NCBI GenBank assembly: GCA_001839685.1
Contig: MLAK01001115.1
Span: 87,115 to 151,114, forward strand
Length of the DNA: 64,000 nucleotides
Reading direction: 5' to 3'
Source: Tritrichomonas foetus
Taxonomy: Eukaryota > Parabasalia > Tritrichomonadida > Tritrichomonadidae
The notes beneath the pieces were generated by a model. The model was not told the DNA's origin, did no database searches, and saw only the letters and a program-made list of their open reading frames with translations. Every line of letters begins with the position of its first letter. Position 1 is the stretch's first letter. Position numbers and translations under genes: made by a program. Of the stretch, positions 20,136 to 47,960 are shown piece after piece.

Positions 20136-23100
20136 ATGATTTGCGAAGCCAATTCGACTTTTTTCTCAGTATTTTTCATTACCAACGCTCTGGCTTCTCA
20201 ATCAATTTCTTTGTGCTACAATTCGATAAATTTTCCACTCCGAAAAACCTTTTCTTTCGATTTTTCTCACGAATCAATAGAAATATTTGGCACAATTTCT
20301 CATTCTCTCATTTCGCAGGGATTCGATATCATACTAGGATATACAGAAAATGCATCTTTTCTACTTACTTCTTCATCAGGCTGCATTCACGAACCATATG
20401 ATAAAACTATTGATATCGTTTGTAAAGAAGGGGAAATATTGGAAAATAATATAAAAATTAAAAGTTGTGTTAATGTGAAGAAAGTTTTTCTTCTCATTAT
20501 ACTTTTTTTCTTCTTAATAATTAGTAGTTATTATTACCGTGAAAAACACATTTTAAAATCCATTCAAAATGATGCAAGTGTCAAATTTGGATCCAGCTAT
20601 AAATACTATTGGCCCAGTGCACAAAATCAATTAATTCAAGATTGTGTCAAAGAAAAAATTATTAAATCAAAAATTAATTCTGCTGATTTCAAAAACAATG
20701 ACTACATTTTGAATAAAACAATTTCTGTTCCATCAAGAAACTCCTACTTCAATGTTGAATTTGATGACATTCCATTTAAAACAACTATAAAAGACGTAAA
20801 TTATTCTGTCAAATCACGGTACATCACTGATGAACTTGAAAAATTCACTTTAATTGATACAAATATTATTAATTCTGATATCGAAGAAGCTCAAATTCAT
20901 CTTAAACATGATGATTTCTCAATTAAAATAAAACCTTTATCAAACTCCCAGAAAATTCCATTTGGTTCTTCAAGTTTAATGGACAACTACACACTAAATG
21001 TAATTTTATATTTAGTTCGACATTTATTAATTGTTGAAAATGAAGAAAACTTTAAATATTTATTAATGAGAGCCTCAGATAGACTTGCACTTGATGGTGT
21101 AGCTCTATATAAAATAGAATTAGGTCAATTTAAAAAACTTTACGATTTCATTCCAAATCCAAAAGTTGAAGAAATAATGGAATCATTTTTAAAGGAAATC
21201 ACTTTTTCTCCATTTTTGAATTGCATTGTAAATGCACAAACGATAAATGGATATCGTGTAGCAGGAACGGTAACATGTCATTCATCAGTAAGATTCGCTT
21301 TTATTACTGCAAGTGAATCATCATGCAGTTTAATGAGACATTCTGAAACAGTTTTTATGTCAATGTTTAGTTTTTTCGTACCAACTGTTTATCTTCAATT
21401 TTCAGATAATAACCCAAATAAAACAAAATTATTGAAACTATTTCATAAATTAACTAGACCTTTCGATATTTATCAGATATCAATAGTGAATGGCCATATA
21501 TATTGGGGATGTAAAAAAGATCAAGAGCGAATTTCAGAAATTTTTCAACTTTCGAAAGATCCAACTATGCTTCAAAGAAATGATTTTACCAAAAAATATA
21601 TCGAAATTGATAAGAAAAAACAACTAATAAAGCAACAACAACAAAGCGAATCACAACAGGAGCATGATTTAGAAATTAAATCGCCCATTTCTAAACGTAA
21701 TCATCATGGTAATGATCATTATAGTATTCACGAATGTAATTTGATCAAATGTCATTTTGATGAAAAAATTCCAGTTGAAACTTGCCAAATCAAAACTTTG
21801 ACATCATCTCGAAATGCCACTTTGTGGAATATCGGTCCTTTTGTAACCCCATCAAAAGTTGAAGAAAATACCTTTGCAAGTATTTTCCATCCTGTTTTCT
21901 TTGATAACAAAGGAAAGATCATGGCCCAAAATACACAATTGTTGAACTTTCGAACAATTTGTGAATTCCAAGATTATGAAAATGCAAATGTTCTTCATAG
22001 CAATTCCAAATTCTATGCACTTTTGAGGTTTAATAATCTTTTTTCTCGAACACCTTCATCATCATATTTGTCTTCTTCAAATATTCCAACTTTTCCCAAG
22101 TTAACTTCAGTTTCATCGTCTTCATCTAGAAAAAGCATAAATTCAATGAATTCTATGCAATTTCCAACCTTATCTAGTAATCTTCAAGATGGAGGTGCAT
22201 TAATAGAAATAGCACAAAGAATCGAAGAGCCAATGTTGATTGAATTTGAAAGTAAAAGTAGATTTGCTGTTTGGGTTGTAAGTTTTGTAACTCTTGATGT
22301 TGTAATGTCAGTGACAAATAAACTCACAGCAAAAAAAATTGAACCAAGATTTTCATTTTTACTGGAAAATTGTCACAAAGACGATATTAAAATGATTAAT
22401 GAAAGTATTGATCATATTAAAATTGTATCATCAATATCACTTTTTATAGAAGTCAGATTAAAACTATATACAGATAATTATGAATGGTATCAAATTCTTT
22501 TAACTAGAAGTAATTCTTCGTATTTGACAATGTTTGCCACAAATATTCATGAGCATAAACGAAGAGTCTCTCTTTTCCAAGAAATTGATCAACAATTATT
22601 AACTGCAATGAGATTTGGTAACGTAATTTGTTTTTATTTCGATGATACGCACTTTCCATCTCGTGTGTATAATTCTGCAACTACACCTTACCAAGCAATT
22701 GATATTAATTGGACTACAATTCAATATAATATTCTAAGTGAAGCGCAAGAACAATTGACTGAAGTGTTTCAAAATACATTGGAAGGTGGACCACCATTTT
22801 CTGTTGAATGCCCTGCCATATTCAGTGAATTTAAATGGCTTACAATTCGTGGGGCTCAAATGACAACACCTGGACACTTACTTGGTATTATGTTGGATAT
22901 CACGCAAATGAAAGAAGCAGAAAGATGCGCAATTGAAGCTAAGCAAAACGCAGAAGAAGCAATGAATGCTAAATCCAAATTTTTATTAAGCATGTCACAT
23001 GAAATTCGAACACCATTATGTGGAATTTGTTCTTTAATTGACATGTTAATCACAACAAAATTGAACGATGAACAAACACAAATGTTACAAATTGTAAAGA

Positions 23101-24698
23101 TGTCATTTACTCGATTAAATGAATTATTGAATGATACTTTAGATCTTGCAAAAATTGAACAAAATGAAATGGATGTTGTCAATGTTAAATTTGAACCACA
23201 AGAAATATTAACAAATTTAATTCGTCCTTATTTTAAAGCAGCAACTGCCAATGGAGTTGAAATGTTTTCAAAAGCATCACCAAGACTTCCAAAAATGTAT
23301 TATGGAAGCCCACATTGTCTTTCTCGGATATTCTCTAATATTGTTTCAAATGCAGTAAAATTTACTTCACAAGCAGGTGCTAATTCTGTCCTCAGTGCGC
23401 AAAAAGAATCCTCATTAGATGATGACGAAATAGACAATAACCATAACACTAACAGAAGTAATGAAAATGTAGCTGAAAAATATCTTGGAAATAATGCGAG
23501 ACAGGAAAAAGCGAAAAGAATTTCTATTTCTGTGAAAGATGATGAAGAAGGCCATCTTATCATTAAAGTGAAAGATACAGGTATTGGAATCAGTGAATCT
23601 GATCAACAAAGAATTTTTGAGATTTTTACACAAGGTGATACTTTAATTACTCGACCATATGGCGGTCTTGGTGTTGGCCTTGCACTTGTTAAGAAAATGC
23701 TTGATTTGATAAATGGGAAATTATATTTAAAGAGCGAAGTAGGAGTTGGTTCAAGTTTTAAAGTCATTTTTCCTTTTGAACCTTTACTTGTTCCCTACAT
23801 TCCCAAAACTTTACTTTCAATGAATTGCCAAATTTTATATTTGACTGAAGAAAATATTTCTCCTCAATCTTTTAAATCATTGAAAAGGCTCACTGATTTC
23901 TATGGATTTGAAATTATACAGGATGTGAATAAAGTTGATTATAATCGAATAGTACTAGTTACATTATCTAATTATAAAAAATTTAGAGAAACTAGTCTAA
24001 AAATAAAGAAAACTGCAAAAACAAACGTCATATTACTGCATGTTTCAAATGAAGGTGTTGATGATCCTGAATTTTATTCAATAATCAAGCCATTCAGGCT
24101 TGATTTCATTTCAACTTTTCTATCGCATATTTTGTGGATGAATAAACGAAGCATAAATGAGCAAAATGATAAATCTTCACCATATGAATTAAAGGATGAT
24201 AATAATAAAATGGTTCGCTTTACAGAATTAAATGACTCCTTAATTCAAGGAAATGAATCTTCTCCTGATAAGAAACAGAAAAACATGAATATCTTTTTCA
24301 ATTTACGTGTTTTAGTCGTGGATGATGATAAAACGAACCAATTCATAATGAAAAAGATTCTCGATAAATTAAAATGTTACTACACTGTTGCCAATAACGG
24401 AATTGAAGGAATTTCGTCTTTGAAAGACGAAACATTTGACATTGCTTTCATTGATCATCAAATGCCCTTTATGGATGGTCCAACAACAACTAAAAATATC
24501 AGGGAAAGTAAAGCTGTTTACGCCGACATTCCAATCATTGCAATGACTGCAAGCGTGTTAAAAGAAGATGAACAAACTTGTTTAGAAGCAGGAATGGACT
24601 TTGTTTTGATAAAGCCTGTTACACTAGAGAAAATAACAGAATTTATAACAAAAGGAATTGAAGTTGGAAAAAAAAAGAGAGAAAATGAGAAAATATAA
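20136..24698 (+). CDS. Membrane hybrid sensor histidine kinase with receiver domain
   Basis: The product has 1520 residues. A short outer region of about 110 residues, possibly after a signal peptide, is followed by one transmembrane helix at about 115-133 (VFLLIILFFFLIISS). Residues about 285-430 look GAF-like, and one or two PAS-like regions lie before the kinase core. The H-box is FLLSMSHEIRTPL with phospho-acceptor His955. The N-box (IFSNIVSNAVKFT), G1 (DTGIGIS), F-box and G2 (GGLGVGLALVK) are all intact. The receiver domain begins at LRVLVVDDDKTN with the acidic pocket near Asp1396, the phospho-acceptor Asp1440 (FIDHQMPFMDG), the TAS threonine and Lys1493 (IKPV). Every catalytic residue is present, so it should autophosphorylate and pass phosphate internally. 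The input signal is unknown. No separate phosphotransfer protein is encoded nearby. Confidence 0.93.
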   Translation: MICEANSTFFSVFFITNALASQSISLCYNSINFPLRKTFSFDFSHESIEIFGTISHSLISQGFDIILGYTENASFLLTSSSGCIHEPYDKTIDIVCKEGEILENNIKIKSCVNVKKVFLLIILFFFLIISSYYYREKHILKSIQNDASVKFGSSYKYYWPSAQNQLIQDCVKEKIIKSKINSADFKNNDYILNKTISVPSRNSYFNVEFDDIPFKTTIKDVNYSVKSRYITDELEKFTLIDTNIINSDIEEAQIHLKHDDFSIKIKPLSNSQKIPFGSSSLMDNYTLNVILYLVRHLLIVENEENFKYLLMRASDRLALDGVALYKIELGQFKKLYDFIPNPKVEEIMESFLKEITFSPFLNCIVNAQTINGYRVAGTVTCHSSVRFAFITASESSCSLMRHSETVFMSMFSFFVPTVYLQFSDNNPNKTKLLKLFHKLTRPFDIYQISIVNGHIYWGCKKDQERISEIFQLSKDPTMLQRNDFTKKYIEIDKKKQLIKQQQQSESQQEHDLEIKSPISKRNHHGNDHYSIHECNLIKCHFDEKIPVETCQIKTLTSSRNATLWNIGPFVTPSKVEENTFASIFHPVFFDNKGKIMAQNTQLLNFRTICEFQDYENANVLHSNSKFYALLRFNNLFSRTPSSSYLSSSNIPTFPKLTSVSSSSSRKSINSMNSMQFPTLSSNLQDGGALIEIAQRIEEPMLIEFESKSRFAVWVVSFVTLDVVMSVTNKLTAKKIEPRFSFLLENCHKDDIKMINESIDHIKIVSSISLFIEVRLKLYTDNYEWYQILLTRSNSSYLTMFATNIHEHKRRVSLFQEIDQQLLTAMRFGNVICFYFDDTHFPSRVYNSATTPYQAIDINWTTIQYNILSEAQEQLTEVFQNTLEGGPPFSVECPAIFSEFKWLTIRGAQMTTPGHLLGIMLDITQMKEAERCAIEAKQNAEEAMNAKSKFLLSMSHEIRTPLCGICSLIDMLITTKLNDEQTQMLQIVKMSFTRLNELLNDTLDLAKIEQNEMDVVNVKFEPQEILTNLIRPYFKAATANGVEMFSKASPRLPKMYYGSPHCLSRIFSNIVSNAVKFTSQAGANSVLSAQKESSLDDDEIDNNHNTNRSNENVAEKYLGNNARQEKAKRISISVKDDEEGHLIIKVKDTGIGISESDQQRIFEIFTQGDTLITRPYGGLGVGLALVKKMLDLINGKLYLKSEVGVGSSFKVIFPFEPLLVPYIPKTLLSMNCQILYLTEENISPQSFKSLKRLTDFYGFEIIQDVNKVDYNRIVLVTLSNYKKFRETSLKIKKTAKTNVILLHVSNEGVDDPEFYSIIKPFRLDFISTFLSHILWMNKRSINEQNDKSSPYELKDDNNKMVRFTELNDSLIQGNESSPDKKQKNMNIFFNLRVLVVDDDKTNQFIMKKILDKLKCYYTVANNGIEGISSLKDETFDIAFIDHQMPFMDGPTTTKNIRESKAVYADIPIIAMTASVLKEDEQTCLEAGMDFVLIKPVTLEKITEFITKGIEVGKKKRENEKI

Positions 24699-25137: not shown

Positions 25138-26955
25138 ATGGGAAGCTCTCCCTCTTCAGCTCAAAAATTAAGAGTGTGTGGATTAAATACATACTCTCAA
25201 CTTGCTGTTAATTCAAATCAGACTTTTAAAAACGATATTCCTTTCGTATGTCCACCATTGGGCGTTAATATTGACATTTCGACACTCAATTCGTTTTCGA
25301 CATTTAGAGGGCATTCAGTATGGGTCAACAAAAATGGAGAAGTTTATGGAATTGGAGATAATCGCCAAAGATTGCTTGGAATTCCAGATCGCAGGATTTT
25401 CAAAGAGGCCGTCCGAATTGAAATTCCAGGAAATACAGAAAAAGTTGTATCGGCAGTATGCGGATCTTCTTATACGCTTTTCTTAACCGAAAATGGAAAT
25501 TTAATTCTCACTCAAGATTTTCTTGGTGATGAGCCCTCAGACTATATCAAAACGTTTAAATTTGATTCAAAAATGGTTCAACTCTTTGGAGGAAGTAGAA
25601 TTCAAGGAGCAATTGATGAAAATGGTGATTTCGTAATTCTTGTTGATAATAAATTTAATGTTATTGATCCAATTAAAGTTCATCTTCCTGAAAAAACTGT
25701 ACAACTTGCTTGTTGTTGTAACTTTGTATGTGCACTAACTGAATCTGGTCAAGTCTATGGAAATTATCGATTTAACAGATACATCAAAACATGGGACATT
25801 TTCAACAACAAAAATCGGAACTTCGTCGAAGCAAAAAAATTGAGTGGAATTAAAGTCACATCAATCGTTGGTACTTCCCATCATTGTATTGCTGTATCAG
25901 ATGATGGTCGAGCCTTTGCAATTGAAGATGAAGTTTGTTGTCACTCAACTGGATTGAATATATCTCTGAATTCAAATGATTTCACTGAAATTTCTTCTTT
26001 GAATCAACACAAAATTGAATTTGCGGCAGCAGGTGAAAACACCTCATTTTTTGTTACAGACACTGGCAAAGTTTTGGTGTGTGGAGAAAACCAATACGGA
26101 CAACTCTTTACAACCACTCAAACAATGATGGAATCAATTCAAAAAAATGATGGAAAAAGCATAACAAATGAAAACTATAAAGATAATACTGTTATTATTA
26201 AATTGAAGTCTAATGAATCAGAAATCAATTCAATAAATGACGTGAAATATCTTGTGCCTGGTGATGGAATAACTTTAGCATTAATTAATTCAAATCCCCC
26301 TGAATACATGCCAAACTTAAACAAACTTCTATTCAATAACATTCTTGAAGCCAAAAACGTCGAACAAAATTTAGAAATAGACAAAAAAACAGAAAAAGAA
26401 GAAGAAAATAATGATTTCTCAGAAGTGCTGAGATCATTGAAACATCATAGTTCAAGGAAAAGAAAAAGTCTCATAAAAAGAACATATACGAAAGAAGAAA
26501 AGAAAGAATTGAAAAGAAAATTCAAACAGGCAGATTCTGATGGAAATAAATCACTCGATATTGATGAATTCACGAATTTTATCAGCACTGAATTAAATAT
26601 AAACAGGAATCTTTCTCCTTTGATTTTTGAAATCTGTGATAAAGATGACAATGGATCAATTTCATTCAAAGAATTCATTTTTTTCACTGAATTGCATTCG
26701 GAATTTGAAAATGAAGAAGTTCTTTTTAAGGCATTGTTCACGAAACTTGATAAAGACAATGATGGGTTCCTTAAACGTGAACAACTTATTCGATTCATTA
26801 AAGCTACAAAGTTACTTTTTGAGGTACAACTTCCTATTAAAATTACACCAGAAAATATAACGAATTTCCTTATACAAACGTATGATAGTAATGGTGATGG
26901 AAAACTCTCGTATGATGAAATGCTGACTTTCTTCAAAGAATATTTCATTGTATAA
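25138..26955 (+). CDS. RCC1-repeat protein fused to four C-terminal EF-hands
   Basis: The product has 605 residues. Residues about 10-390 form an RCC1-like beta-propeller, with blades marked by phrases such as VYGIGDNRQRLLGI and VLVCGENQYGQL. After a charged linker come four EF-hand loops: DSDGNKSLDIDE (about 466), DKDDNGSISFKE (501), DKDNDGFLKREQ (about 538; Gln at position 12 instead of Glu) and DSNGDGKLSYDE (583). Three should bind calcium well and the third more weakly. The protein begins MGSSPSS, a good N-myristoylation motif. A calcium-controlled propeller anchored to a membrane is the natural reading; the client is unknown. Fusions of these two domains are uncommon. The stop is followed after about 105 bases by perfect palindromes. 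Confidence 0.88.
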   Translation: MGSSPSSAQKLRVCGLNTYSQLAVNSNQTFKNDIPFVCPPLGVNIDISTLNSFSTFRGHSVWVNKNGEVYGIGDNRQRLLGIPDRRIFKEAVRIEIPGNTEKVVSAVCGSSYTLFLTENGNLILTQDFLGDEPSDYIKTFKFDSKMVQLFGGSRIQGAIDENGDFVILVDNKFNVIDPIKVHLPEKTVQLACCCNFVCALTESGQVYGNYRFNRYIKTWDIFNNKNRNFVEAKKLSGIKVTSIVGTSHHCIAVSDDGRAFAIEDEVCCHSTGLNISLNSNDFTEISSLNQHKIEFAAAGENTSFFVTDTGKVLVCGENQYGQLFTTTQTMMESIQKNDGKSITNENYKDNTVIIKLKSNESEINSINDVKYLVPGDGITLALINSNPPEYMPNLNKLLFNNILEAKNVEQNLEIDKKTEKEEENNDFSEVLRSLKHHSSRKRKSLIKRTYTKEEKKELKRKFKQADSDGNKSLDIDEFTNFISTELNINRNLSPLIFEICDKDDNGSISFKEFIFFTELHSEFENEEVLFKALFTKLDKDNDGFLKREQLIRFIKATKLLFEVQLPIKITPENITNFLIQTYDSNGDGKLSYDEMLTFFKEYFIV

Positions 26956-36794: not shown

Positions 36795-38357
36795 ATGCTT
36801 CTCGAATCTCAAGATACCGATAGTTATATCGATTTAGATGTTAAAGAAGAAGGGTTAACTAGAAGGCCTTTCATGAAGAAATTGTTAATTGGTTTGGGAA
36901 TTTTCGCTTTAGTATCTGTGATTACTATTGGAATTGTAATGATTCCGAAGACTAATGTACAAAAAACTCTCTTTTCTTCACACTCTCAAGCAAATGGACC
37001 AAGAACATACATCCCTCTTGATATATGGAATTTCACAAAAGATATTAAAGATGTTGGAACAGGTGCCGTTTTTACAATTGACAAACCACACCTTTGGAAT
37101 GGAAGGGCTGATCCATTTTTGTATACTGCTTATGTTGAAGTGTTTATTGGAAGTGAAGTAAGCGATATAATATCGCATGATTTCGGTTTTCGAACGATGG
37201 CAATTTCCAGAGAAGGATTCTTTTTAAATGATGAAAAGGTGAGATTGAATGGTGTGAATCGTCATCAAGACAGGCAAGATAAAGGCTGGGCAGTTTCCAG
37301 CGAAAATGAAATTGAAGATTTTGATCTTATTTATGAAATGGGTGCAAATGCAATTAGATTAGCTCATTATCAGCAAAATGAATCAGTATTTGAAATATGT
37401 AATCGAAAAGGATTTATCGTTTGGGTTGAAGTTCCATTTATTCAAAGGTTTATGAATACAAGAAAATCAACTGATAACATTATGAATCAATACATTGAAC
37501 TTATTAAGCAGAATTTCAATCATCCATGTATTGCAATGTGGGGAACCATGAATGAACTTGCATTTGATGGTCATGAATCTGAAGAACTTACAGCTGTCAG
37601 CAATATGTCACTAATTGCGCATGTATTGGATCCTACAAGATTAACAACTGGTGCCATAACACCTAATTTCAAATCAACTGATGAACTACCAAATATTCCT
37701 GATGTGAATGGTTGGAATTTTTATTATGGATGGTATTATGGAGAAATATCAGATGTGTCTTCAGTAATTGATAACTTATTAAAAGAAGTGTCATTCCATC
37801 CAATGTCCATTTCTGAATATGGTGCTGATGCCAACATCAAATATCATTCAGAAAATCCTAAAGCTAAAGATTACTCTGAAGAATATCAGACACTCCTTCA
37901 CATGAAAACATATGAAATTTTCTTAACAAAGAAGATTTGGGGAACTTTCATTTGGAACATGTTTGAATTTGCTGTTGACTCAAGAGATGAAGGTGGTGTT
38001 AAAGGAAGAAACAATAAAGGTATGGTTACATATGATAGAAAGATAAAGAAAGATGCCTACTATTATTATATAGCAATGTGGAGTGAAGATCCATTCGTTT
38101 ACGTGAGTGGAAAAAGATTCCATGATCGAGCGGTTGATAACATCAAATTCTATGTTTTCAGCAATCAAAAAGATCTCAAAGTTTACTTAAATGATGAAAT
38201 TATTGCAACAGAAACGAATTTCACAAATTATAAGGAATATTCAGTAACTTTGAATAAAGGAGTTAACATTGTGAAAACCATTTCTGGTGATCTTGAAGAC
38301 TCCTCAGAATTTGAGAGAGTTACAAAAGAAAATCCAAGTTACCGATGTCCTAATTGA
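36795..38357 (+). CDS. Membrane-anchored GH2 glycosidase (beta-galactosidase-like), lacking the N-terminal domain
   Basis: The product has 520 residues. A cytosolic N-terminus leads into a type II membrane anchor at about 28-50 (LLIGLGIFALVSVITIGIVM). The sequence then enters GH2 within the middle immunoglobulin-like domain (LWNGRADPFLYTAYVEV), followed by the TIM barrel (FFLNDEKVRLNGVNRHQD). The acid/base Glu254 (MNELAF) and nucleophile Glu341 (SEYGAD) are both present. Full GH2 enzymes are usually much longer and start with a jelly-roll sugar-binding domain; that domain is missing here. Either this is a real compact anchored enzyme or an internal deletion has joined the anchor to the middle. 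The family is bacterial-like, so lateral transfer into the lineage is plausible. It would cleave beta-linked sugars at the surface or in the secretory pathway. Confidence 0.82.
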   Translation: MLLESQDTDSYIDLDVKEEGLTRRPFMKKLLIGLGIFALVSVITIGIVMIPKTNVQKTLFSSHSQANGPRTYIPLDIWNFTKDIKDVGTGAVFTIDKPHLWNGRADPFLYTAYVEVFIGSEVSDIISHDFGFRTMAISREGFFLNDEKVRLNGVNRHQDRQDKGWAVSSENEIEDFDLIYEMGANAIRLAHYQQNESVFEICNRKGFIVWVEVPFIQRFMNTRKSTDNIMNQYIELIKQNFNHPCIAMWGTMNELAFDGHESEELTAVSNMSLIAHVLDPTRLTTGAITPNFKSTDELPNIPDVNGWNFYYGWYYGEISDVSSVIDNLLKEVSFHPMSISEYGADANIKYHSENPKAKDYSEEYQTLLHMKTYEIFLTKKIWGTFIWNMFEFAVDSRDEGGVKGRNNKGMVTYDRKIKKDAYYYYIAMWSEDPFVYVSGKRFHDRAVDNIKFYVFSNQKDLKVYLNDEIIATETNFTNYKEYSVTLNKGVNIVKTISGDLEDSSEFERVTKENPSYRCPN

Positions 38358-43715: not shown

Positions 43716-46700
43716 ATGGAAATCCCAAGCAATATTCTCCCTGATGAACGCATTCAAGTTAAAAACTGGGCGAACGGAATCATTGGGAAATATCGAATAA
43801 GAGTTAAAAATATCAGACTTGATTGCGCAGACGGAGTAATTTTTCTACGAATCATCGAAACAGTCACAGGACAGCCAGTCGGGATTGACTGGAGTCAACA
43901 GCCGAAAGATATTTTAGAAAAACGAACGAATGTACAAGCAGCGATTTCCTTCTTAGAAAATAATGATATTATTCCAAAAAATTCGATTTCAATCGACGAT
44001 ATAATTTGGGGAGAAGAAAAGTATTCATTCGCACTTCTCAGACAAATGCAAAAAAGCCTGAAAAAAGGTCAAACGAAGCCTTTAAACAAAAAAGATAATT
44101 TACCCAAAATTAATCAACAATCGAACAAATCTAGCCAACCAAATAATAAGCCTGGTCAGTCAAATCAACAAATGACAACTTCAGCCCAGCAAAGAAGCGC
44201 ATCAGCCCAAAATCCAAAAGCCAACATAAATAAACAAAAAATGTTTCAAATGAAATACGCAAAGCCATTCAACCCCACCCCAAATGTTCCGTTATACATG
44301 ATGGATAAGAAAACAGAAAAGCAGCCTGAAAAAGTGTCACTATTTGCCGCGGCAAAATCTAAAAAGCCAAAAGTGTTTCAATTTGATGCTGGATTTTTCA
44401 AAGGAAGAGATCCTAAAAAGTCTCCCCAACAACAACAGCACGATAATCAACAGCCTCAATCTCAACGACAAGGAAGCCTCTTCAAAAACCGGAAGCCACT
44501 TGGAAACTTACCTGATGAAAGAAAAGCCAATTCTGCAATGGAAGGAAAGCGCACGAAGAATCTGAATAGTAGCGGTGAAGTAAACACTGATGACGAAGAA
44601 AATATCGATGAATTATTGAAAGGCATATCAAATGAGACCTTAGCAAGATATAGAATTACAGATGACATGCCACTGAAAGAAAAACGAAGAAGAATACTGA
44701 TGTTACGAGAAGATGAAGAAAATGGTGATGAAACAAACTTACTACGACTTAAAGAAGAAGATGAATTGGGTGAAGGAATATTATCAAGAAGCCGAATACT
44801 GCAAAATGGTGAAGGTAATGGAAATCCAAGCAATGACGATAATGATAATAGTAATACTAAAGCTAGAAGTGGAAATTTGGAATTAGGTGAATATGCAAAT
44901 GAAACTCCAGAACAAAGAGAAAAAAGACTAGAAGAAGAAAGAAAGAAGAAAGAAGAAGAAGAAGAAGAAAAACAACGAAAAGAGGAAGAAGAAAAACCTC
45001 AACATACTCAAACCGAAGAGCAAAGAAGAGCTTTAGAATTAGCTGAACAACAAAAGAAAGAAGAAGAAGAAAGAAGAGCTTTAGAATTAGCTGAACAGAA
45101 AGCCAAAGAAGAGGAAGAAGAGCGAAAGAAGAAAGAGGAAGAAGAAAAACGTCAAAAAGAAGAAGAAGAAAGAAGAGCTTTAGAATTAGCTGAACAGAAA
45201 GCCAAAGAGGAAGAAGAACAAAAGAGAAAAGAAGAAGAAGAAAGAATCAAGAAAGAGGAAGAAGAACAAAAGGCTAAAGAAGAAGAGGAAAGAAGAGCTT
45301 TAGAATTAGCTGAACAGAAAGCCAAAGAAGAAGAAGAACGAAAGAAGAAAGAGGAAGAAGAACGAAAGAGGAAAGAAGAAGAAGAAGAACGAAAGAGGAA
45401 AGAAGAAGAAGAAGAAGAACGAAAGAGGAAAGAAGAAGAAGAACGAAAGAAGAAAGAGGAAGAAGAAAAGAAAGCCAAAGAAGAAGCTGAAAAGAAAGCC
45501 AAAGAAGAAGCTGAGAGGAAAGCGAAAGAGGAAGCTGAAAAGAAAGCNNNNNNNNNNNNNNNNNNNNNNNNNNNNNNNNNNNNNNNNNNNNNNNNNNNNN
45601 NNNNNNNNNNNNNNNNNNNNNNNNNNNNNNNNNNNNNNNNNNNNNNNNNNNNNNNNNNNNNNNNNNNNNNNNNNNNNNNNNNNNNNNNNNNNNNNNNNNN
45701 NNNNNNNNNNNNNNNNNNNNNNNNNNNNNNNNNNNNNNNNNNNNNNNNNNNNNNNNNNNNNNNNNNNNNNNNNNNNNNNNNNGAAGCTGAAAAGAAAGCT
45801 AAAGAAGAAGCTGAAAAGAAGAAGAAACAGGAAGCGGAGCGTAGAGCTCGTGAAGAAGCTGAAAGAAAGAGGAAAGAAGAAGAGGAAGAACCACCTATTG
45901 AAGTTAAAAATCAACTTTCTCCTGAGCAAATGCAAGAACTTCCTCCACCCCTTCCTAGATCTAACTATGTTGTTGGAATTGACTTTGGAACTGCAACGAC
46001 TAGATTTGGAATCTACAAAGATGGAAAACTCAATGAGAAAATGAATGAATGGTCGATTCCTTCTGCAATTGCGTTTGATGACAAAGGGAACAAAACATTC
46101 AATATCACTGATGAAATCCTTAACGATCCTTCATTTACAATTGTTTCAGCTACAAAGAGATACCTTGGACGTGATGTTTCTCCTGATATTGCAGAAAATC
46201 TCACTTTCGATATTCAAAGTGATACTCTAAGCAAGACAATAGGTAATTCTAAAAGTGGTACAAAAAGAGCAACTGTTCGTATTGGAAATGAATGTCTTAC
46301 ATTTGAACAAATTGCTGCGTTGGTTCTCGGTGAAGCCAAAAGAATTATCGATGATCAAATGAAAGAAGATGTTGTTGATGCAGTTATTTGCGTGCCAGGC
46401 TTTTTCAGTAACAACCAAAAAGTTGCAATGCGTGATGCTACTGCAATTGCAGGCTTCCAAGTTAAAAAACTTGTTACTGAAACAGCGGCCGTTATGACTG
46501 CTTTCCACAACAATAGTGTAAAAATTGGCGAAGGAACAGGGGATGGACAAAACATTGCTTATTCCACTCAAAATCAAAAATCACTTGTTGATGGAGCTAA
46601 AGTTCAATCAAATTCTGGAAATGAATCAAATGCAACTGGCACAGCTGGTGATACAACTAAAGATGGATCAGGAAATGAAGCCAAAAATGCCACTGGTGAT

Positions 46701-47960
46701 GGTATTGACGGCAATAGAAGCAGTAGAACATCCAATCCAGATGAAAAGAAAGCTGTTGTTGTTGACTTCGGTGCAGGTACTCTTGATGCTTCAATTGTTG
46801 GAATTGAAGAAGATTCCATCACAATTCATCGGACTTCAGGTGATACCAATTTAGGTGGTATTGATATTGATATTGCATTGGCACAATTTGTTTTAACAAA
46901 AATACCAACAGACAAAGCCGATGCAATTAAAGGAGACCATCGTGCAATGAGACTCTTATTTAAACAGTGTGAAAAATATAGGATTGAAGGGTTAAACAGA
47001 GTAACTGTTCCAAAAATCATTGATGATTATGATCTTGATGTTGAAATCACTGCTGATGAATTCCGCGACATCTTGAAACCATTTGGCGAACGCCTTGAAA
47101 GTTGTCTTGAAGAGCTTTTTAAGCGAAACAACAGAACACGCAAACATGATATCAGTGAAGTTGTTTTAGTTGGTGGTGTTTCAAATATGCCTGCCTTAAC
47201 CCAAGTTGTTAACGACTTCATGAAGACTGACAATCCTGGAAAATTCCAACTCAGACATTTAGATTCAAATGCAGCTATGGCTGGAGCTGCTATCCAAGGT
47301 GCAATCTTCATTGGTGATGGTAGTGTTAAACCAGTTTCTGTGAAGAATACTATGGCATTATCAATCGGATTTTCTCTTGCTGATGGAACTACAAGTGTTT
47401 TAATTCCACGAGGTACAGTTTTACCTGCATCATTTTCAACAGAAACAACAACATTCAAAGATAATCAAAAGAATGTTGGTTTTGATATCATTGAAGGTGA
47501 AAGGAAAATGGCGGCTGATAACATTAAGCTCGGTAATGTTTGTGTTACTGATATTCAAAAAGCGCCGAGAGGAGTTCCAAAGATTATTATTACTATGGAT
47601 ATTAATGAAGAAGGGCTTTTAATTGTTACTGCACATGATAAAACAACCGGCTCTTTAATTCGATCAACAATTAATTCACAGAATAAGCTTACTAAAGAAG
47701 AAGTTAGAAGAATGATTGCTGAAGCAGAAGCAAACAAGCAAGCAGATAAATATGCAAGAAAACAGGCAGAATCTCGTGCCAAATTAACATTCTATGTAAA
47801 TGAAATTAAATCGAAAGGAAAAGACATAGATGATCCGCAATTTAAAGAGAAAGTTGAATATTATTTGAAATGGATCAGTGAACATCAAGCTGAAAAGCCG
47901 TCTGTGTACTTGAAAATGTATAGTCAGGCTCAAAAAGAATTGAAATCATATGTTACATAA
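43716..47960 (+). CDS. Calponin-homology / charged-helix / Hsp70 fusion protein
   Basis: The product is about 1414 residues. Residues about 8-110 form a calponin-homology domain (VKNWANGIIGKYRI, LDCADGVIFLRIIE, a tryptophan in WGEEKYSFALLRQM), the type that binds actin or microtubules. A Q/N/K-rich disordered region follows to about 400. Then comes a long highly charged E/K/R helix built from repeats such as EERRALELAEQKAKEEEEER and KKAKEEAE, interrupted by an assembly gap. Residues about 751-1414 are an Hsp70: GIDFGTATTRFGI, ATKRYLGR with its lysine, VVVDFGAGTLDASIV, VVLVGGVSNMP, then the substrate-binding beta domain and a short lid. A low-complexity insert of about 65 residues sits before the second phosphate motif. 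Some Hsp70 signatures are altered (GAGTLD for GGGTFD, GGIDID for GGEDFD). The frame is open across both sides of the gap. Confidence 0.88.
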   Translation: MEIPSNILPDERIQVKNWANGIIGKYRIRVKNIRLDCADGVIFLRIIETVTGQPVGIDWSQQPKDILEKRTNVQAAISFLENNDIIPKNSISIDDIIWGEEKYSFALLRQMQKSLKKGQTKPLNKKDNLPKINQQSNKSSQPNNKPGQSNQQMTTSAQQRSASAQNPKANINKQKMFQMKYAKPFNPTPNVPLYMMDKKTEKQPEKVSLFAAAKSKKPKVFQFDAGFFKGRDPKKSPQQQQHDNQQPQSQRQGSLFKNRKPLGNLPDERKANSAMEGKRTKNLNSSGEVNTDDEENIDELLKGISNETLARYRITDDMPLKEKRRRILMLREDEENGDETNLLRLKEEDELGEGILSRSRILQNGEGNGNPSNDDNDNSNTKARSGNLELGEYANETPEQREKRLEEERKKKEEEEEEKQRKEEEEKPQHTQTEEQRRALELAEQQKKEEEERRALELAEQKAKEEEEERKKKEEEEKRQKEEEERRALELAEQKAKEEEEQKRKEEEERIKKEEEEQKAKEEEERRALELAEQKAKEEEERKKKEEEERKRKEEEEERKRKEEEEEERKRKEEEERKKKEEEEKKAKEEAEKKAKEEAERKAKEEAEKKXXXXXXXXXXXXXXXXXXXXXXXXXXXXXXXXXXXXXXXXXXXXXXXXXXXXXXXXXXXXXXXXXXXXXXXXXXXXXXXEAEKKAKEEAEKKKKQEAERRAREEAERKRKEEEEEPPIEVKNQLSPEQMQELPPPLPRSNYVVGIDFGTATTRFGIYKDGKLNEKMNEWSIPSAIAFDDKGNKTFNITDEILNDPSFTIVSATKRYLGRDVSPDIAENLTFDIQSDTLSKTIGNSKSGTKRATVRIGNECLTFEQIAALVLGEAKRIIDDQMKEDVVDAVICVPGFFSNNQKVAMRDATAIAGFQVKKLVTETAAVMTAFHNNSVKIGEGTGDGQNIAYSTQNQKSLVDGAKVQSNSGNESNATGTAGDTTKDGSGNEAKNATGDGIDGNRSSRTSNPDEKKAVVVDFGAGTLDASIVGIEEDSITIHRTSGDTNLGGIDIDIALAQFVLTKIPTDKADAIKGDHRAMRLLFKQCEKYRIEGLNRVTVPKIIDDYDLDVEITADEFRDILKPFGERLESCLEELFKRNNRTRKHDISEVVLVGGVSNMPALTQVVNDFMKTDNPGKFQLRHLDSNAAMAGAAIQGAIFIGDGSVKPVSVKNTMALSIGFSLADGTTSVLIPRGTVLPASFSTETTTFKDNQKNVGFDIIEGERKMAADNIKLGNVCVTDIQKAPRGVPKIIITMDINEEGLLIVTAHDKTTGSLIRSTINSQNKLTKEEVRRMIAEAEANKQADKYARKQAESRAKLTFYVNEIKSKGKDIDDPQFKEKVEYYLKWISEHQAEKPSVYLKMYSQAQKELKSYVT
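45548..45782. other. Assembly gap of 235 unknown bases inside a repeat
   Basis: N run flanked on both sides by the same KAKEEAE-coding repeat. The frame is kept if the N count is taken literally, but the true length is unknown. Confidence 0.98.

What the first reader, a model, noticed from the sequence alone, without database searches (positions are those of the whole stretch)
43716..47960. Calponin-homology domain fused to Hsp70 through a long charged helix
One frame joins an N-terminal calponin-homology domain (cytoskeleton binding), a long E/K/R helix and a full-length Hsp70. I know of no standard Hsp70 class with this layout. It suggests a chaperone tethered to actin or microtubules, with the helix as a rigid spacer. 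Altered ATPase signatures (GAGTLD, GGIDID) and a 65-residue insert before the second phosphate motif hint at changed ATP handling.
Basis: partly seen in the sequence, partly recalled or inferred. Interest (0 to 1): 0.82.

Follow-up and report, generated by a model that had tools for sequence, protein, structure and literature searches.

The report
Hsp70 chaperones fused to cytoskeleton-binding domains
A cattle parasite and some of its relatives carry a family of Hsp70 protein-folding helpers built in one piece with a domain that often grips the cell skeleton, in this gene joined by a very long charged helix, which suggests chaperones anchored to the cytoskeleton.

Summary
Window 43716-47960 (+) is one 1414-codon frame crossing an N gap (45548-45782): CH domain (Pfam E 4e-9), low-complexity linker, 372-residue E/K/R helix, Hsp70 (E 1e-92). 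It is very unlikely to be an assembly join. The organism is Tritrichomonas foetus. Its genome has four more CH-Hsp70 loci free of N gaps, three as single unbroken frames. One is recorded as "Heat shock protein SSA3"; another (TRFO_07700) was annotated without its CH domain. T. musculus and several unnamed sequences have relatives with both domains; one more, P0002, has the window's linker motif, long helix and Hsp70 without a gap, but no CH in its frame. In trees, the 13 fused CH domains form one clade (100/99) and the 20 family Hsp70 domains another (100/100), with the same main split, as one fusion would give. CH typing favours actin-type CH1, but CH2 and the CH1 second-site sequence are missing. 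The window keeps six recalled core ATPase residues, so it need not be dead; its relatives mostly carry Lys for Thr204 (21 of 24). Best reading: a distinct, cytoskeleton-tethered Hsp70 class. The tether target is untested.

The parts
43716..47960 (+). CH-Hsp70 gene, one frame of 1414 codons plus stop
43749..44045 (+). calponin-homology domain (aa 12-110), CH1-like; family motif DDIIWGE at 43995-44015
44097..44837 (+). low-complexity linker (aa 128-374); motif KVFQFDAGFFKG at 44370-44405, ten residues of it (FQFDAGFFKG) also in P0002
44838..45953 (+). E/K/R-rich predicted single alpha-helix (aa 375-746, by a 50-residue charge window), partly hidden by the gap
   Evidence: ionic-pattern and charge-period computation
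45548..45782 (.). assembly gap (235 N) inside the helix repeat array; true length unknown
45969..47327 (+). Hsp70 nucleotide-binding domain (from VVGIDFGT)
   Evidence: Pfam PF00012 E 1.3e-92; PDB matches
46506..46751 (+). 82-residue Gly/Asn/Ser-rich stretch (cytosolic T. foetus Hsp70: 11 residues) before the second phosphate motif
46764..46787 (+). phosphate-2 motif DFGAGTLD (aa 1017-1024)
47328..47957 (+). altered interdomain linker, substrate-binding domain and short lid; no EEVD tail

Best explanation
The window encodes one member of a distinct Hsp70 class in tritrichomonads, 'CH-Hsp70'. It most likely arose by one fusion of a CH1-type domain to an Hsp70 and then duplicated into several subfamilies with different spacers. 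Shown: the CH plus Hsp70 architecture in unbroken relatives, common descent of each half, and retained core ATPase residues. Inferred: the CH domain docks the protein on the cytoskeleton, most likely F-actin; the E/K/R helix, about 50-60 nm if fully helical, holds the Hsp70 module away from the filament; the Hsp70 module binds clients with a well conserved substrate-binding domain and runs an altered, probably slower and differently regulated ATP cycle, so that it works more as an anchored holdase than as a free refolding machine.
Confidence: 0.6

Rival explanations
1. Structural flagellar part: the protein is a fixed component of the axoneme or another trichomonad microtubule structure, with the Hsp70 half as a docking or assembly module, as the CH protein CPC1/SPEF2 and HSP70 sit together in the C1b projection of the Chlamydomonas central pair.
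Against: CH typing is CH1-like, and the CH-like sperm-protein family CH_2 scores only E 0.087. The same paper found no Hsp70 specifically associated with C1b/C1f subunits in Tetrahymena. Five loci with very different spacers do not look like one fixed axonemal part.
Confidence: 0.18
2. The CH domain is a protein-protein or regulatory module and the Hsp70 half a scaffold with little ATPase activity; no filament is bound.
For: Type 3 CH domains usually stand alone and act in signalling and other proteins too (PMC7240100 passages). T204K in 21 of 24 family rows, altered adenine side and interdomain linker. One subfamily carries strongly degenerate tandem Hsp70 units (P0030, P0031, C370 plus, C239).
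Against: The window keeps the core catalytic residues and T204, and the substrate-binding region is well conserved, which is not expected of a dead scaffold.
Confidence: 0.17
3. Assembly artefact or two genes joined across the N gap.
For: The gap lies between the CH half and the Hsp70 half, in what is probably the short-read draft of PMC5399258; no single gap-free relative has CH, long helix and Hsp70 together.
Against: Similar coding repeats flank the gap in frame; P0002 runs from linker motif through helix to Hsp70 without a gap; unbroken CH-Hsp70 proteins exist in T. foetus, T. musculus and unnamed sequences; the two halves give matching main splits.
Confidence: 0.04

Closest known systems
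Cytosolic Hsp70 / Hsc70 (PF00012)
   Same: Nucleotide-binding domain, substrate-binding domain and lid; core catalytic residues kept in the window
   Different: Separate clade; N-terminal CH domain and spacer; E231 and linker changes, no EEVD tail; T204K in most relatives
CH1 domain of alpha-actinin, filamin and plectin actin-binding domains
   Same: Sequence profile, tree side and predicted fold
   Different: No CH2 partner; second-site region replaced by a WGE motif (by eye); fused to Hsp70
Single alpha-helix (SAH) domains, as in myosins and drebrin (PMC5378345, PMC12203971: search listing with abstract starts)
   Same: E/K/R-rich, i to i+4 opposite charges, few hydrophobic positions
   Different: Here between a CH domain and an Hsp70; length uncertain because of the gap
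CPC1/SPEF2 plus HSP70 in the ciliary C1b projection (PMC8175508: passages)
   Same: A CH protein and an Hsp70 listed in one cytoskeletal complex
   Different: There two separate proteins, here one polypeptide; no localisation known here

Membership tests
Hsp70 (PF00012) | Profile match over both nucleotide-binding and substrate-binding domains | tested here: met
   E 1.3e-92, above cut-off; two-part PDB matches to full Hsp70s
Hsp70 (PF00012) | Core Mg/phosphate residues D10, T13, K71, E175, D199, D206 (Hsc70 numbering recalled) | tested here: met
   All six in the window and in 14 more of 24 family rows; the 9 exceptions are listed in the report
Canonical cytosolic Hsp70 | LLLL-type interdomain linker and EEVD C-terminus (features recalled) | tested here: not met
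   Window linker reads PVSVKNT and the protein ends LKSYVT; none of the 20 family rows with a natural C-terminus ends in EEVD
Hsp110-like | Groups with Hsp110-like T. foetus rows in a tree | tested here: not met
   Two separate clades, each 100/100; the Hsp110-like label of those 7 rows is by eye, with no named Hsp110 in the tree
CH domain (PF00307) | Profile match and CH fold | tested here: met
Tandem CH1-CH2 actin-binding domain | Two CH domains in tandem | tested here: not met
   One CH stretch only in aa 1-610
CH1-type CH domain | Closer to first than to second CHs of tandem proteins | tested here: met
   99/96 branch with first CHs of C250, C177, C238, C243, their second CHs elsewhere; but the first CH of C367 also lies elsewhere; best PDB stretches in first CHs
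F-actin or microtubule binding protein | Measured filament binding | not testable with these tools
   Sequence only
Single alpha-helix domain | Dense i to i+3/i+4 opposite charges without a heptad hydrophobic seam | tested here: met
   helicity itself not measured, X residues removed before the calculation

The most novel reading that the evidence does not exclude
Tritrichomonads evolved an Hsp70 class that is a mechanical chaperone: a CH1 domain grips actin, a 50-70 nm single alpha-helix acts as a constant-force spring, and the Hsp70 head, with a rebuilt phosphate-2 site (Lys for Thr204 in most members) and rewired interdomain linker, holds client or partner proteins at the filament in a cycle set by force or a non-standard nucleotide.
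Probability: 0.15. Interest if true: 0.92.

Novelty: new variant of a known kind. Interest (0 to 1): 0.72.

Why it matters
Hsp70s are usually steered by separate J-proteins and adaptors (general knowledge). Here targeting seems built into the chaperone and was duplicated several times, which makes the question of whether chaperoning at the cytoskeleton needs a fixed address directly testable. The family also has Hsp70s with Lys at the threonine of the second phosphate motif, a natural experiment on the ATPase. Records hide it: one member is named only 'SSA3', another lost its CH domain in annotation.

Tried and rejected
Two-gene or artefact reading: judged unlikely on gap-free relatives. 'Dead ATPase' from GAGTLD and GGIDID: not supported, core residues kept. 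Coiled coil for the charged stretch: hydrophobic a/d occupancy is low and the charge period is 8, not 7, so a single helix fits better; not proved. CH_2-type CH: weak Pfam score, though a central-pair chain is among the VIA rows. A J-protein carrying the same CH: among matches below E 1e-8 the CH part was found only on Hsp70 frames; the 36 DnaJ matches were seen by frame length only and not scanned for CH. PDB search with alignment A2 was swamped by Hsp70 and told nothing about the CH. Plasmid search gave DnaK-type matches at about 31% in the five of 176 records listed. Rows dropped: of 47 aligned Hsp70 rows the quick tree left out o_C487, o_C136 and o_C350 (44 rows), and the tree also four degenerate tandem domains (40 rows). 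In one search the label 'CH seen' (12 rows) needed 7 changes, so it is not one clade by itself; the whole family is. Of the own genome's Hsp70 matches only those with loci (30 of 64 rows) were read.
Full report
What is there. Window 43716-47960 (+) is a single open frame of 1414 codons starting with ATG. Pfam finds a CH domain at residues 12-110 (E 4.4e-9 for the 128-residue piece, above cut-off) and an Hsp70 (E 1.3e-92). Between them lie a low-complexity linker (aa 128-374) and an E/K/R-rich stretch (aa 375-746). The frame crosses one run of 235 N at 45548-45782, the only long N run in the window. The assembly is probably the short-read strain K draft (PMC5399258, first of two parts of the text read: 68.5 Mb in 1,573 scaffolds); the held genome is 63.7 Mb in 1,064 contigs, so the match is likely, not proved.

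Organism. The own-genome CH-Hsp70 on contig C206 is letter for letter the 811-residue protein named Heat shock protein SSA3 of Tritrichomonas foetus. The IMP dehydrogenase frame matches PDB 1ak5 with 1084 bits; the next full-length chain has 249, three shorter chains 759, 758 and 629. That 1ak5 is from T. foetus is recalled.

It is not a lone gene. Searching the own genome with the N-terminal part gave, besides itself, nine matches. Four are N-terminal CH domains on frames that also carry Hsp70: C537, C206, C370 minus and C370 plus. Of the other five, three match the charged helix only (C1041, C11, C214) and two are other CH proteins (C243, C238). C206 (811 aa), C537 (1236 aa) and C370 minus (759 aa) are unbroken frames. 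C370 plus holds CH plus an Hsp70 unit in one frame; two open frames overlap between 21786 and 21957, and further Hsp70 units follow in the second. I describe it and leave it.

Relatives elsewhere. With the Hsp70 half of P0003 as query, 3397 proteins passed E 1e-5 among 7991 scored, 120 were listed, and 8 of these 120 carry precomputed CH plus Hsp70 domains: P0028, P0029, P0030, P0031, P0033, P0037, P0038, P0042. P0028 is the T. foetus C206 protein. P0038 is named Hsp70 chaperone of Tritrichomonas musculus and pairs with C537. P0039, TRFO_07700 of T. foetus, is the C537 protein without its first 122 residues, so its CH domain is missing from the record. P0003 has a weak Pfam CH (E 0.051) but aligns along the CH domain of the others. 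P0002 (1428 aa), next to the window in the Hsp70 tree together with P0001, has the linker motif FQFDAGFFKG, a 463-residue charged helix and the Hsp70 in one unbroken frame; Pfam finds no CH in it. So CH to Hsp70 and long helix to Hsp70 are each seen without a gap, though not CH, long charged helix and Hsp70 all in one gap-free relative.

One origin. A CH profile built from 13 proteins found those 13 (by construction) and otherwise only P0027 and P0028, copies of C206, among 144 fetched proteins and 27 own-genome Hsp70 frames. In a tree of 42 CH domains the 13 fused ones are one group (100/99, all 200 bootstrap trees). A 99/96 branch puts them with 13 other rows, among them the first CHs of C250, C177, C238 and C243, whose second CHs lie elsewhere; the first CH of C367 also lies elsewhere on a long branch, and the root is for drawing only. 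In a tree of 40 Hsp70 domains the 20 family rows are one group (100/100), apart from the cytosolic, BiP-like, DnaK-like and Hsp110-like rows; these names for T. foetus rows are mine by resemblance. Both trees have the same main split: window, P0003 and P0037 (83/84 in the CH tree; within a 7-row clade of 100/99 in the Hsp70 tree) against the rest (99/96 and 97/89). Smaller joins, such as the places of P0042 and P0033, differ. A quick tree of 44 rows labelled only by visible CH needed 7 changes, because several family rows show no CH. Some of these look truncated; others, such as P0034 and the C239 tandem domains, may have lost it.

Helix. Aa 375-746 has 294 readable residues, 39% E, 20% K, 10.5% R. 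Its net i to i+3/i+4 ionic score is 0.61 per residue against -0.01 (sd 0.048) in 200 shuffles, its charge autocorrelation peaks at 8, and its best heptad register has 12% hydrophobic a/d positions, 19% with Ala counted. This is the pattern of single alpha-helices (abstract starts of PMC5347031 and PMC5812594, search listing). At 0.15 nm per residue, a textbook value, 372 residues would be about 56 nm; the gap length is uncertain and the calculation closed up the X residues.

Hsp70 half. Sites are numbered as in Hsc70 from memory, aligned on the T. foetus cytosolic protein. The window keeps D10, T13, K71, E175, D199 and D206. Over 24 family rows, all six are kept in 15; C370m, P0002, P0030c and P0031c have D for E175, P0001 has E for D199, and four tandem domains have S for T13 and E for D206. 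T204 of the phosphate-2 motif is K in 21 of 24, T in 2 (window and P0001) and C in 1 (P0002). It is T in 9 of 9 canonical T. foetus rows and 4 of 4 outside rows; of the ten other divergent T. foetus rows one, o_C350, also has K, one T and eight other letters. E231 is lost in 24 of 24. In the window S275L, R342N, D366N, R155K and R171K depart from residues invariant in the nine canonical rows, N174T from one kept in 8 of 9; R272I and S340V are at sites that vary among the canonical rows too. I recall R155, R171 and N174 as important for allostery and J-protein contact. The LLLLD-type linker is replaced, and none of the 20 rows with a natural C-terminus ends in EEVD. The substrate-binding region stays well conserved. 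The stretch before phosphate-2 is 82 residues against 11 in the cytosolic protein; of 24 family rows P0001 has 117, P0002 57, and the other 21 have 8 to 36.

Function. I judge it a cytoskeleton-tethered Hsp70, with the architecture and common descent shown and the tether and the altered ATP cycle inferred. An axonemal role is the main rival: CPC1/SPEF2 and HSP70 are listed in one central-pair complex in Chlamydomonas, while the same paper found no Hsp70 specifically associated with those subunits in Tetrahymena, though Hsp70 was lower in mutants lacking them (PMC8175508, passages).

In print. Ten paper searches were answered. Those bearing on this layout listed no paper whose title or abstract start speaks of a CH-Hsp70 fusion; only open-licence full texts were searched. 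I read passages of PMC4053983 (where the two terms are unrelated), PMC8175508, PMC7240100 and PMC12428144 and part one of PMC5399258. The main text of the T. foetus review PMC12428144 holds no word beginning with hsp70 or calponin.

Mended on re-reading.

Noticed in passing
own genome G000:C239:73791-85248 (L028, L071, L026, L022, L024, L016): An Hsp70 array: five Hsp70 units in one frame of up to 3375 codons, another Hsp70 unit upstream, and a 2.5 kb N gap starting at 75149; the last unit belongs to the CH-Hsp70 clade but no CH was seen.
   Followed up: partly
own genome G000:C370:16533-26624: Two CH-Hsp70 loci head to head; the plus-strand one has tandem, partly degenerate Hsp70 units and a frame switch near 21.8 kb. 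P0030 and P0031 are unbroken relatives with several Hsp70 units.
   Followed up: partly
P0039 (TRFO_07700), own genome C537: The public T. foetus protein lacks the first 122 residues of the frame, so the CH fusion is hidden in the record.
   Followed up: yes
window 20136-24698 (+): Hybrid histidine kinase: HisKA, HATPase and response regulator in one 1520-codon frame of a parabasalid.
   Followed up: no
window 25138-26955 (+): RCC1-type repeats joined to EF-hands in one 605-codon frame.
   Followed up: no
window 36795-38357 (+): Glycoside hydrolase family 2 frame matching the barrel and only the end of the middle domain; possibly a cut-down gene.
   Followed up: no
window 44370-44405, P0002 and P0037/P0040 linkers: Short conserved linker motif (FQFDAGFFKG in the window and P0002; RIFDIGHDPRVF in P0037 and P0040 may be related), perhaps a docking motif.
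   Followed up: partly
own genome, PF00012 matches: 64 Hsp70 matches, many to part of the nucleotide-binding domain only, in frames of about 650-1260 codons; an unexplored set of divergent Hsp70-like proteins.
   Followed up: no
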